Below, one piece after another: positions 41,005 through 63,975 of a stretch of DNA of 64,000 bases. The notes under the pieces were generated by a model that was not told where the DNA came from, did no database searches, and saw only the letters and a program-made list of their open reading frames with translations. Made by a program: the position numbers and the translations under genes. How positions within the stretch are numbered: the first letter of the stretch is position 1; the number at the start of each line of letters is the position of its first letter. This stretch comes from an uncultured Ruminococcus sp. (GTDB lineage: Bacteria > Bacillota > Clostridia > Oscillospirales > Acutalibacteraceae): assembly GCA_902793125.1 (NCBI GenBank), contig CADBCC010000011.1, forward strand, positions 27,039 to 91,038. Direction: 5' to 3'.

Positions 41005-41344
41005 GCGAGTAAATTGAACAGTCGCGCGTTTATTTTGAAAAGAATTTTCGCGAGGAAAGTCCGGGCTCCACAGAGCGATAACAACGGCTAACGGCCGCCG
41101 AGGGTGACCTTAGGGATAGTGCAACAGAAAATAACCGCCGTTTTTCGGTAAGGATGGAAAGGTGAGGTAAGAGCTCACCGCTGGTATGGAGACATACCTG
41201 GCGTGTAAACCCTGTTTGGAGCAACACCGTGGAGGGACATTTGCCTGCTCGGCAGTCCCGTGGAGGTGGCGTTGAGCAAGTCGGCAACGGCTTGCCAAGA
41301 TAGATGACTGTTCACGACAGAACCCGGCTTACAGATTTAGTCGC
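41005..41344 (+). ncRNA. rnpB: RNase P RNA (M1-type, class A-like)
   Basis: The catalytic RNA that removes tRNA 5' leaders. Universal core segments are present: GAGGAAAGTCCGGGCTCC near 41052, the GAGGGTGACCTTAGGGATAG and GTGCAACAGAAA segments, GTAAACCCTGTTTGGAGCAA near 41204, AGATAGATGACTGTT near 41299, and the 3' ACAGAACCCGGCTTACAG. The ends GCGAGTAAAT and ATTTAGTCGC pair as P1. The internal layout looks like ancestral type A, normal for Clostridia. Start and end are set from P1 pairing, the promoter and the downstream terminator. Confidence 0.97.
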
Positions 41345-41349
41345 AATAA

Positions 41350-50193: not shown

Positions 50194-50286
50194 GCAGAGA
50201 TGTCCGAGCTGGCCGAAGGAGCATGATTGGAAATCATGTGTACGGTAATCATCGTACCGAGGGTTCGAATCCCTCTCTCTGCGCCA
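50194..50286 (+). tRNA. tRNA-Ser (GGA)
   Basis: The acceptor stem GCAGAGA/TCTCTGC, discriminator G and encoded CCA give 93 nt. The anticodon loop TTGGAAA is closed by CATGA/TCATG, with anticodon GGA at 50229-50231. A long class II variable arm (TACGGTAATCATCGTACC) and the T-loop TTCGAAT in a GAGGG/CCCTC stem complete a serine tRNA. A terminator follows at once, then the tRNA-tail element. Confidence 0.97.
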
Positions 50287-50485
50287 GTAAAAAACCGCAT
50301 ACCCAAACGGGTATACGGTTTTTTATTTGCGTAAAATAGAGAGAGGGATTCGAAGCGCGCCGTAAAGAAAATGCTCCGGGGGAGCGTTTTTAGGCGTGAG
50401 CGTTTATGAATGTTTTAGCTATGCTACACATCCCAAGGTTCGAGATGAAAGTTTTCTCATAGATGAACATACTCTCTCTGCGCCA
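50287..50485 (+). repeat. tRNA-tail element, unit A1 (199 nt tail to tail)
   Basis: A non-coding unit after tRNA-Ser. In order it holds the tRNA terminator; AGAGAGAGGGATTCGAA at 50338-50354, the exact 17-nt reverse complement of tRNA bases 50264-50280; and a hairpin at 50358-50396 with base stem CGCC/GGCG, internal loop GTAAAG/TA and upper stem AAAATGCTCC/GGAGCGTTTT. Next come GTGAGCGTT and a CAAGGTTCGAGATGAA segment whose GTTC (50438-50441) can pair with GAAC (50465-50468). It ends with a direct copy of the tRNA 3' end, CTCTCTCTGCGCCAGT at 50472-50487, matching 50273-50288 exactly. The AGAGAGAG and CTCTCTCT ends can close the unit. No reading frame of note. Confidence 0.85.
50288..50324 (+). 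terminator. Intrinsic terminator of tRNA-Ser
   Basis: The stem AAACCGcATACCC/GGGTATaCGGTTT, with an AAAC loop, is followed by a T-run. It starts 2 bp after the CCA. Its apex (TACCCAAACGGGTA) resembles that of the terminator behind the second tRNA. Confidence 0.9.
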
Positions 50486-50656
50486 GTTTCGTAGAAAAGA
50501 GAGGGATTCGAAGCAGTCCAGTACAAAATATAGTCGTCTCACTTCGCCCTAAGAGCGGGCTCGTGAAACTCCTTATTTTGCACAGCGCTTATGCTCCCTT
50601 AATCCGCCGTTTATGATGTTAGAAAGTATATGAAATCTTTCCAAAGGCGGCTATGG
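50486..50656 (+). repeat. tRNA-tail element, degenerate second unit A2
   Basis: Twelve bases after the tail copy, AGAGAGGGATTCGAAGC (50498-50514) repeats the inverted tRNA-tail sequence of unit A1. It is followed by a diverged version of the internal hairpin (AAAATA/TATTTT, then CAGCGCTT in place of GAGCGTT). A further imperfect hairpin follows (CCGCC at 50603-50607 with GGCGG at 50646-50650). No third tail copy is visible before the rubrerythrin terminator. I read it as a decayed or truncated unit; I see no gene here. Confidence 0.55.
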
Positions 50657-63579: not shown

Positions 63580-63777
63580 GGCAGGGGCTGCGGGTAGTTC
63601 ATCTGTGATAGGACTTCAATCTCGAACCTTGTGTCCACGTTTATTGGAAAGGTTTCTGCAACGCTACAGGCTAAAAACAGTCCACAGGACTGTTTTCTTT
63701 ACGCCTTTTCGAATCTCGCCGTTTACTTAATATAAACGCTATAGGGAGCACCCGTGTTGGGTACTCCCTATAGCTTA
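63580..63777 (-). repeat. tRNA-tail element, unit B2 (distal copy)
   Basis: Read on the minus strand this is the second of two tandem units with a 198-bp period. It holds the terminator-like hairpin (63773-63739), the inverted tRNA tail CGGCGAGATTCGAA (63721-63708), and an internal hairpin with base stem GGC/GCC, loop GTAAAG/TA and upper stem AAAACAGTCC/GGACTGTTTT (63705-63669). Then come GTAGCGTT and ACAAGGTTCGAGATTGAAG with a GTTC/GAAC pair. The expected final tail copy is diverged (CCCGCAGCCCCTGCCC). The 85 bp from 63708 to 63792 are identical to 63906-63990. No coding capacity. Confidence 0.85.
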
Positions 63778-63975
63778 TGGCGGAGACGGCGATCAGTTCA
63801 TCTACGAGACAGATTTCATATCGAACCTTGTGTACACGTTTTTGGGAAAAGTTTCTGCAACGCTACGCCCTAAAACAGTCCACAGGACTGTTTTCTTAAC
63901 GGGCTTTCGAATCTCGCCGTTTACTTAATATAAACGCTATAGGGAGCACCCGTGTTGGGTACTCCCTATAGCTTA
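63778..63975 (-). repeat. tRNA-tail element, unit B1 (next to the tRNA)
   Basis: Minus strand: terminator-like hairpin (63971-63937), inverted tail CGGCGAGATTCGAA (63919-63906), internal hairpin with base stem GCCC/GGGC, loop GTTAAG/A and upper stem AAAACAGTCC/GGACTGTTTT (63904-63867). GTAGCGTT follows, then CAAGGTTCGATATGAAA with GTTC/GAAC. It ends in a direct copy of the tRNA 3' end, TCGCCGTCTCCGCCA (63792-63778), identical over 15 nt to the tRNA tail at 63990-63976. The end motifs CGGCGA and TCGCCG can close the unit. Confidence 0.87.
63937..63971 (-). terminator. Hairpin directly after the partial tRNA
   Basis: The stem CTATAGGGAGTACCC/GGGTGCTCCCTATAG with an AACAC loop lies 5 bp after the CCA on the minus strand. 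The tail CGTTTATATT is T-poor. An identical hairpin sits at 63739-63773 behind the tail copy. Confidence 0.7.

What the first reader, a model, noticed from the sequence alone, without database searches (positions are those of the whole stretch)
50194..50514. A tRNA-Ser gene is followed by a unit carrying both an inverted and a direct copy of its own 3' end
After the tRNA terminator there is a 17-nt exact reverse complement of the T-loop/T-stem/acceptor (50338-50354). Then comes a structured non-coding stretch, then an exact 16-nt direct copy of the acceptor end with CCA (50472-50487), then a second inverted copy (50498-50514). Simple phage or ICE attachment duplications give only direct copies, and no integrase is nearby. 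The two copies could close the unit by AGAGAGAG/CTCTCTCT pairing, giving a tRNA-like 3' overhang ending in CCA. Possible readings are a small tRNA-targeting mobile element, a fold-back/template-switch product, or an RNA that uses tRNA processing enzymes.
Basis: seen in the sequence. Interest (0 to 1): 0.88.

Follow-up and report, generated by a model that had tools for sequence, protein, structure and literature searches.

The report
Repeats that echo tRNA gene ends
Behind many transfer-RNA genes of a group of gut bacteria sit short, folded, non-coding repeat units, many of which carry a backwards and a forwards copy of the end of the very gene they follow, which looks like an undescribed kind of small mobile element matched to its target.

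Summary
The antisense, direct and second antisense copies are exact. A model of the core without tRNA letters has 50 matches in this genome and hits 57 of 60 genomes of the genus. Units lie within 200 nt 3' of 19 of 38 tRNA genes and 5' of none. In 65 units directly behind tRNAs of 25 species, the far flank copies the own tRNA (12.4/14; other tRNAs 7.4/14) and the near flank is its antisense (13.8/17; 9.9/17). The T-loop/antisense pattern occurs in 50 of 197 genomes of the order. Gene-end copies also stand behind what I read as rpsI and tpiA, pointing to DNA-level insertion at gene 3' ends. Best reading: non-autonomous, strand-specifically structured elements inserted with a duplication of about 14 nt. 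The mover is unknown; RT, Y1 transposase and Cas1 are each missing from at least three of six unit-rich genomes. Movement and the tailoring of the antisense arm are unproven. I found no description in print.

The parts
50194..50286 (+). tRNA-Ser(GGA), the host gene whose 3' end is copied
50273..50286 (+). source of the direct copy: tRNA nt 63-76 (last 3 nt of T-stem, acceptor strand, discriminator, CCA)
   Evidence: nt numbers counted back from CCA; boundary map
50282..50331 (+). terminator-like hairpin between tRNA and unit; with both flanks it makes one long imperfect palindrome from the tRNA T-loop to the antisense copy
   Evidence: inverted repeats I1, I2
50338..50354 (+). antisense arm A: reverse complement of tRNA nt 70 to 54
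50355..50471 (+). conserved structured core; best own-genome match of covariance model R1 (116 bits; it is also a training sequence of R1)
50356..50398 (+). helix P2 (50356-50361 with 50393-50398) around hairpin hp1 (50368-50390); in other copies P2 often holds tandem G-A pairs
   Evidence: coordinates converted from alignment columns
50472..50487 (+). direct copy S of the tRNA 3' end with CCA plus 2 nt
50498..50514 (+). antisense arm of a second, interrupted unit
50517..50609 (+). second multicopy repeat ('el.2') that interrupts the second unit; also found in places without a tRNA nearby
   Evidence: (query positions 368-459/460)
63793..63907 (-). core of a further unit at the contig end; its tail matches tRNA-Ser(cga)
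63595..63709 (-). core of a second unit of the same array, with a diverged tail

Best explanation
The unit is one copy of a large family of short (about 145-200 nt) non-coding elements that sit at the 3' ends of tRNA genes, and more rarely of conserved protein genes, in this order of bacteria. Each copy most likely arose by insertion right after the gene, with a duplication of about 14 nt of the gene's 3' end. The gene keeps its own end; the far end of the element is followed by the second copy (S). The element brings a terminator hairpin, usually an antisense arm (A) matched to the target just before the duplicated stretch, and a core that folds on the tRNA-coding strand. A can pair with S (closing the unit) or with the gene's own end (across the terminator). 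I think the element is non-autonomous and is moved in trans by a recombinase that sees the folded strand, perhaps of the tyrosine type. SHOWN: S and A copy the unit's own tRNA in most units examined; the junction at nt 62/63 is sharp; multicopy and often tandem; strand-specific fold; gene-end copies behind what I read as rpsI and tpiA. INFERRED: insertion with duplication, mobility, the recombinase, and the role of A. The match of A to a new target could come from pairing-dependent targeting or from later template-switch correction of the palindrome.
For: Own-tRNA match of both flanks in 65 first units of 13 genomes and 25 tRNA species: S is the single best for its own tRNA in 41 of 65, A in 37 of 65. 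Sharp S boundary: 0.15 identity to own tRNA at nt 62, 0.94 at nt 63 (53 units). 19 of 38 tRNAs of the genome have a unit within 200 nt 3', 0 have one 5'. In 23 tRNA genes of loci from other genera of the order, picked only for A, 14 also have S, against 0 of 411 tests with foreign tails. The last 16 nt of what I read as rpsI occur four times, its own end included (0.04 expected), and the last 21 nt of what I read as tpiA twice, its own end included, with related hairpins between copies. The nearest relative of a core lies in the same genome for 55 of 133 (16 expected), 40 of these with another tRNA's tail (tails assigned by best match of at least 11 of 14). In one genome a unit with a Leu tail (L241, behind the 3' half of a tRNA-Leu) and one with a Pro tail (L252, near a contig end, no tRNA seen) are 89% alike over 179 nt of terminator, A and core, yet each tail is 14/14 for its own tRNA. 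A site without a unit but with the same neighbouring genes exists in G007. Tandem G-A pairs fix the folding strand (222 of 884 P2 cells are G-A). Tyrosine integrases of ICEs are known to use tRNA and rpsI 3' ends (passages of PMC4701971).
Against: No excision, circle or strain-level gain was seen; one genome per species is held. A simple one-crossover integrase reaction cannot give the target's own tail on both sides when the element comes from another tRNA (L241/L252), so either a duplication-making enzyme or gene conversion is needed. The case for a tyrosine recombinase is weak: such enzymes matched in 6 of 6 unit-rich genomes, but the same profile also matches in 14 of 14 control genomes, so their presence says little; serine, DDE and IS110-type enzymes were not tested. 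A subtype keeps S but lacks A (L114:2620, L118:4920, L175:2067). Cores are not closer between tRNAs that share nt 54-62 (permutation 1020 of 2000), against simple A-guided jumping. Genes between units are rare: four intervals in G000 (L301 twice, L302, L122), while 20 regions of up to 19.9 kb showed no full unit beyond arrays already known. At rpsI the gene-bearing interval has no core at its far side. Nothing was found in plasmids, phages or viral contigs with the queries used.
Confidence: 0.45

Rival explanations
1. An RNA gene family. Each unit is transcribed (by read-through or its own promoter), folds with A pairing to S, and ends in a tRNA-like CCA tail that lets tRNA enzymes trim it; A may also pair with the precursor of its own tRNA and regulate it.
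For: Compensatory changes in P2 and hp1; structure specific to the tRNA-coding strand (G-A pairs of P2); tails are often followed by a terminator-like hairpin (seen); A:S pairing columns covary.
Against: The same kind of end copy stands behind what I read as two protein genes and includes the stop codon, which a tRNA-specific RNA role does not explain. hp1 shows no clear wobble bias (6 G-T and 4 A-C in 1504 cells, against 35 and 10 in 60 terminators). A terminator-like hairpin usually separates the tRNA from the unit. No Rfam family reaches its cut-off over a unit. P1 covariation follows from the tRNA origin of both arms.
Confidence: 0.2
2. No mobility: an ancient unit at each tRNA that expands and shrinks by recombination between direct repeats. 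A and S are kept alike to the tRNA by gene conversion and by template-switch correction of the tRNA-terminator-A palindrome, and cores are partly homogenised within a genome.
For: The nearest core has the same tRNA's tail in 30 of 133 (7.4 expected), 15 of them in another genome; near-exact tandem duplications (L243, L343); template switching is reported to homogenise inverted-repeat arms (abstract start of PMC8604942), and in yeast such events were only seen under high transcription (abstract of PMC3820800).
Against: Does not explain how units came to stand behind so many unrelated genes. Where the S copy differs from the tRNA within nt 63-70, A follows the tRNA in 7, the S copy in 2 and neither in 3 of 12 cells, too few to decide.
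Confidence: 0.2
3. Left-overs or satellites of ordinary tRNA-targeting ICEs and prophages: repeated integration and loss at the same att site leaves tails plus the conserved element ends.
For: An integrase gene ends shortly upstream of a tail in L301, L246 and L336; direct tail repeats are the normal trace of such integration (passages of PMC4701971).
Against: In L301 the sequence between the integrase and the tail holds no core; the core lies beyond the tail. One related core behind 25 tRNA species would need many integrases of different specificity to share it. The antisense arm is no part of a standard att site (recalled knowledge).
Confidence: 0.1

Closest known systems
Integron cassette arrays (attC sites)
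   Same: Tandem units ending in a repeated recombination-site-like sequence; two inverted arms close a variable folded stretch; single-strand fold (attC: abstract start of PMC2727003); occasional genes between units.
   Different: No attC consensus (0 of 158 units); no integron integrase over the cut-off in 6 of 6 genomes; arms match the neighbouring gene; most units carry no gene.
ICE/IME/CIME integration and accretion at tRNA 3' ends (tyrosine integrases)
   Same: Target is the 3' end of tRNA or of genes such as rpsI; direct repeat of the gene end; tandem accumulation.
   Different: Elements of 145-200 nt without an integrase; antisense copy of the target; one core family behind many different targets; target-type tail on both sides even when the rest resembles a copy with another tRNA's tail.
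REPINs/REP elements with RAYT transposases
   Same: Short palindromic, multicopy, non-autonomous, extragenic.
   Different: No Y1 transposase found in 4 of 6 unit-rich genomes including the own one; REPs do not copy their target (recalled).
Casposons / CRISPR-type integration
   Same: Integration at a tRNA 3' end with a target duplication of about 14 nt has been described for casposons (recalled, not looked up); arrays of repeats with inserts between.
   Different: No Cas1 found in 4 of 6 unit-rich genomes, though the own genome has a match; no terminal inverted repeats noticed by eye.

Membership tests
Integron cassette | attC with RYYYAAC...GTTRRRY arms | tested here: not met
   0 of 158 units, shuffled mean 0.92
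Integron cassette | integron integrase (TIGR02249) in the genome | tested here: not met
   below cut-off in 6 of 6 unit-rich genomes; generic tyrosine recombinases match there and in 14 of 14 control genomes
Integron cassette | gene in most cassettes | tested here: not met
   Four gene-bearing intervals seen in G000 (L301 twice, L302, L122); none further in 20 extended regions
Tyrosine-integrase element (ICE/IME/CIME) | direct repeat of the target gene's 3' end flanking the element | tested here: met
Tyrosine-integrase element (ICE/IME/CIME) | integrase in cis, or att arms usable by a resident integrase | tested here: inconclusive
   none seen near the window locus; shortly upstream in three other loci; usability not testable
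REPIN / RAYT | RAYT (Y1_Tnp) in the genome | tested here: not met
   2 of 6, not in the own genome
Retro-element (group II intron, retron, DGR) | reverse transcriptase in the genome | tested here: not met
   RVT_1 in 3 of 6, not in the own genome; assembly 97.56% complete
Casposon / CRISPR array | Cas1 in the genome | tested here: inconclusive
   2 of 6 including the own genome, but absent from 4 unit-bearing genomes
Known Rfam RNA family | score above the gathering cut-off over the unit | tested here: not met
   window and 20 loci: over units nothing above a gathering score; the tRNAs, RNase P RNA and an FMN riboswitch were the matches above it
Functional tRNA-like RNA | transcribed, CCA-ended, processed by tRNA enzymes | not testable with these tools
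   no expression data
IS110 bridge-RNA element or serine-recombinase element | matching recombinase in the genome | not tested

The most novel reading that the evidence does not exclude
A nucleic-acid-guided insertion system without a known relative: the antisense arm A of the element (as RNA or single-stranded DNA) base-pairs with its target just left of the cut (tRNA nt 54 to about 66), a trans-acting enzyme cuts with a 14-nt stagger (nt 63-76), and the element is inserted so that the gene stays intact. Retargeting to a new gene would only need a new arm, which would explain one core family behind at least 25 tRNA species and protein genes.
Probability: 0.13. Interest if true: 0.93.

Novelty: new variant of a known kind. 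Interest (0 to 1): 0.8.

Why it matters
Half of the tRNA genes found in this genome (19 of 38) are followed by an unannotated structured element, and in most such units that I examined the element copies the end of its own host gene; the arrangement reaches across the order. If it moves, it is a small mobile element matched to its target by sequence, with an enzyme still to be found and possible use for harmless insertion at tRNA 3' ends. If it does not move, it is a striking case of palindrome-driven evolution at highly transcribed genes. Either way it affects how tRNA-linked integration sites, repeats and contig breaks in such genomes are read.

Tried and rejected
Rejected: chance; assembly artefact (independent genomes); a known RNA family; integron attC; RT-, RAYT- or Cas1-dependent movement as the common mechanism. 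Considered and dropped: a short coding frame in the core (I read an SD-like GGAGG and an ATG, but stops fall at different places in different copies; by eye, no statistics).

Tests and facts against me: cores are not closer between tRNAs with the same nt 54-62. Mean column identity of cores is about the same for same-genome/different-tRNA and different-genome pairs, so spread or homogenisation within genomes is partial at most. 20 regions of up to 19.9 kb showed no long cassette arrays. In the 65 first units, A does no better than foreign tRNAs in a minority (for example L114:2620, L118:4920, L175:2067, L254:1526, L297:1257, L287:1865) and S fails in several (L254:1526, L234:1501, L240:1937, L261:813, L267:1535, L297:1257, and L263:1683, which runs into N). 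DNA folding energy hardly prefers a strand (plus more stable in 91 of 157). Only 26 of 48 unit matches of the own genome have a tRNA on the same strand within 2 kb upstream; the others that I looked at lie at contig ends, beyond an inserted element, or behind other genes. The pattern hits of the order: of the 30 loci fetched, 27 have a tRNA at exactly one end, none is two tRNAs tail to tail and in 3 no tRNA was found; the remaining hits were not checked. In the phylum sample the pattern hits 13 genomes besides the own one of 299, of which eight look to me like two tRNA genes facing tail to tail.

Dropped rows: one search listed 168 of the 174 alignment rows, after removing overlapping loci L174 and L178; one search kept units with a tRNA within 125 nt that ends in CCA and with flanks long enough (65); one search kept 53; searches kept 133; one search kept 83; one search left out the two weakest of the 50 matches.

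Literature: eight answered searches with terms on tRNA-flanking repeats, cassette arrays, palindromes, ICE sites, template switching and attC listed no paper whose title or abstract start describes such units; the library lacks most subscription papers and all preprints. Seen: listings and abstract starts in general; passages of PMC4701971; abstract and section list of PMC3820800.

Searches were added.

Full report
What is in the window. tRNA-Ser(GGA) occupies 50194-50286. It is followed by a terminator-like hairpin and then by an exact antisense copy of nt 70-54 of the tRNA (50338-50354), a 117-nt stretch, an exact direct copy of nt 63-76 plus two more bases (50472-50487) and a second antisense copy (50498-50514). 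Near-matches to these words (up to 1 mismatch) occur nowhere else in the window and shuffles give none. The second antisense copy begins a second unit that is interrupted by another multicopy repeat at about 50517-50609. Two more units stand at 63595-63907 on the minus strand, at the end of the contig.

It is a family. A DNA search of relatives with the region showed further copies of its middle part in the own genome and its genus; 13 of the 20 loci that I then fetched hold a tRNA. I built a covariance model (R1) from 17 cores, leaving out the tRNA-like arms. Its helix P2 and hairpin hp1 carry compensatory changes (8 of 16 pairs changed on both sides; sliding the pairing destroys this). R1 gives 50 matches at E up to 0.1 in the own genome, matches in 57 of 60 genomes of the genus at E up to 0.01 and, in other genera mostly for the P2/hairpin part, in 27 of 197 genomes of the order at E up to 0.0001, the own one included.

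The organism. One contig of a same-genus genome (G015:C55) has the same length as the public record JAFSZY010000014.1, 'Ruminococcus sp. isolate RGIG3627', so a Ruminococcus-like gut bacterium is my inference.

The arms match the unit's own gene. I examined 168 core matches with their flanks. For the 65 that stand within 125 nt of a tRNA ending in CCA (13 genomes, 25 tRNA species), the 3' flank matches nt 63-76 of that tRNA in 12.4 of 14 positions on average, against 7.4 for 51 other tRNA tails. The 5' flank matches the antisense of nt 54-70 in 13.8 of 17, against 9.9. The own tRNA is the single best for the tail in 41 of 65 and for the antisense arm in 37 of 65. Position by position in 53 units, the direct copy begins sharply at nt 63 (0.15 identity at 62, 0.94 at 63). 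The antisense arm is 0.94-1.00 at nt 54-63, falls over nt 64-70 and is low beyond (the arms were located by their best stretch and a minimum match was asked for, which favours those positions).

Genome census. Of 38 tRNA genes found in this genome, 19 have a unit within 200 nt on the 3' side, none on the 5' side; of the other 19, 5 are at contig edges, 5 lie inside tRNA clusters and 9 have none. Presence is patchy: in G007 the same tRNA-Ser between the same neighbouring genes has no unit.

Spread. The pattern T-loop, 50-80 nt, antisense T-loop occurs in 50 of 197 genomes of the order (29 of 111 genera), the own one included, with no match of the reversed control. Of the 30 loci fetched for it, 27 have a tRNA at exactly one end, none has two tRNAs tail to tail, and in 3 no tRNA was found. 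In 299 genomes of the phylum it occurs in 14, and eight of these look like two tRNAs facing each other. In other families of the order the units are often cleaner and shorter, for instance L315, L317 and L328. In 23 tRNA genes of such loci from other genera, chosen for the antisense copy alone, 14 also have the direct tail copy, against 0 of 411 tests with foreign tails.

Not only tRNAs. Behind a gene that I read as rpsI (L301, ORFs) the last 16 nt including the stop codon occur four times, the gene's own end included, with related hairpins between the first and second and between the third and fourth, and two ORFs between the second and third. Behind a gene that I read as tpiA (L216) its last 21 nt occur twice, the gene's own end included, around the hairpin. 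These gene names come from my reading of the translations, not from a tool. The 3' ends of tRNA genes and of rpsI are known targets of tyrosine integrases of ICEs (PMC4701971, passages). In L301 a gene with a Pfam integrase domain ends shortly upstream of a tail copy and units; L246 and L336 look the same, with generic tyrosine-recombinase hits.

Which strand folds. Among 151 distinct units, hairpin hp1 is Watson-Crick in 1489 of 1504 cells. Helix P2 holds 222 G-A cells of 884; tandem G-A pairs are stable while the C-T mismatches of the other strand are not (recalled), so the tRNA-coding strand is the one that folds, as RNA or as single-stranded DNA. hp1 shows little wobble (6 G-T, 4 A-C), unlike 60 neighbouring terminators (35 and 10). 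Computed DNA folding energies of whole units hardly differ between strands. A and S can pair to close the unit and their columns covary, but this follows from their origin and is no separate proof.

Evidence on movement. The nearest relative of a core is in the same genome for 55 of 133 (16 expected by shuffling), 40 of these with another tRNA's tail, and has the same tRNA's tail for 30 (7.4 expected), 15 of these in another genome. In G070 a unit with a Leu tail and one with a Pro tail are 89% alike over 179 nt including terminator and A, but each tail is 14 of 14 for its own tRNA; the first stands behind a 3' half of a tRNA-Leu, the second near a contig end. This pattern needs either insertion with target duplication or conversion of everything except the tail. 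Jumping between tRNAs with equal nt 54-62 is not visible in the distances, and over all pairs cores of one genome are not clearly more alike than others.

Candidate enzymes. In six unit-rich genomes a reverse transcriptase (RVT_1) is found in 3, a Y1 transposase in 2, Cas1 in 2 and an integron integrase above the cut-off in none. The own genome has neither RVT_1 nor Y1 but has a Cas1 match. Generic tyrosine recombinases match in all six, but also in 14 of 14 control genomes, so this says little. Serine, DDE and IS110-type enzymes were not tested.

Genes between units. They stand in four places of the own genome: L302 (a DUF3232 protein and a 296-aa protein without a Pfam match; beyond the last unit a weak VbhA antitoxin match below its cut-off), L301 (a DUF218 protein; two proteins at rpsI) and L122 (a 330-aa protein that looks to me like a helix-turn-helix regulator). 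In 20 regions of up to 19.9 kb I saw no full unit beyond arrays already known, so the likeness to integrons is limited. The attC consensus is absent.

Judgement. The direct copy with a sharp edge, the same trace behind what look like protein genes, and related cores behind many tRNAs speak for DNA elements inserted at gene 3' ends. The antisense arm is what no known element of this sort has, to my knowledge. It may be a targeting arm, or the result of palindrome correction against the tRNA, or both; a subtype lacks it. I put 0.45 on the mobile-element reading; a tyrosine recombinase in trans is a guess from the kind of target. I found no description in print with the searches listed.

Noticed in passing
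window 50517-50609; L114, L115, L117, L119, L125, L126, L127, L128, L130: A second multicopy repeat (AAAATATAGTCG...CTCCTTATTTTG...GTCGCAACGCTAC) found after antisense arms, inside a unit (L128) and in places without a tRNA nearby; in L130 it appears to supply a stop codon at a gene end; its reverse strand shows a tandem G-A helix by eye.
   Followed up: partly
L126, L125, L114 (upstream of tRNA-Leu): Partial copies of the tRNA-Leu 5' half stand upstream of the tRNA gene with the second repeat next to or inside them: a 5'-end counterpart of the 3'-end copies (read by eye).
   Followed up: no
window 41006-41347 (+): RNase P RNA, bacterial class A.
   Followed up: no
L301:1759-2916, L246 near 1-1330, L336: Tyrosine integrase genes ending shortly before a tRNA tail copy followed by units, suggesting integrative elements inserted between tRNA and unit.
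   Followed up: partly
L342 (G113): 142-nt tandem repeats carrying T-arm and antisense T-arm next to a tRNA-Pro, in a different arrangement from the usual unit.
   Followed up: no
L114:2620, L118:4920, L175:2067: A subtype that keeps the direct tail copy but has another hairpin (GATTTAAGC...GC.AAATC) in place of the antisense arm.
   Followed up: no
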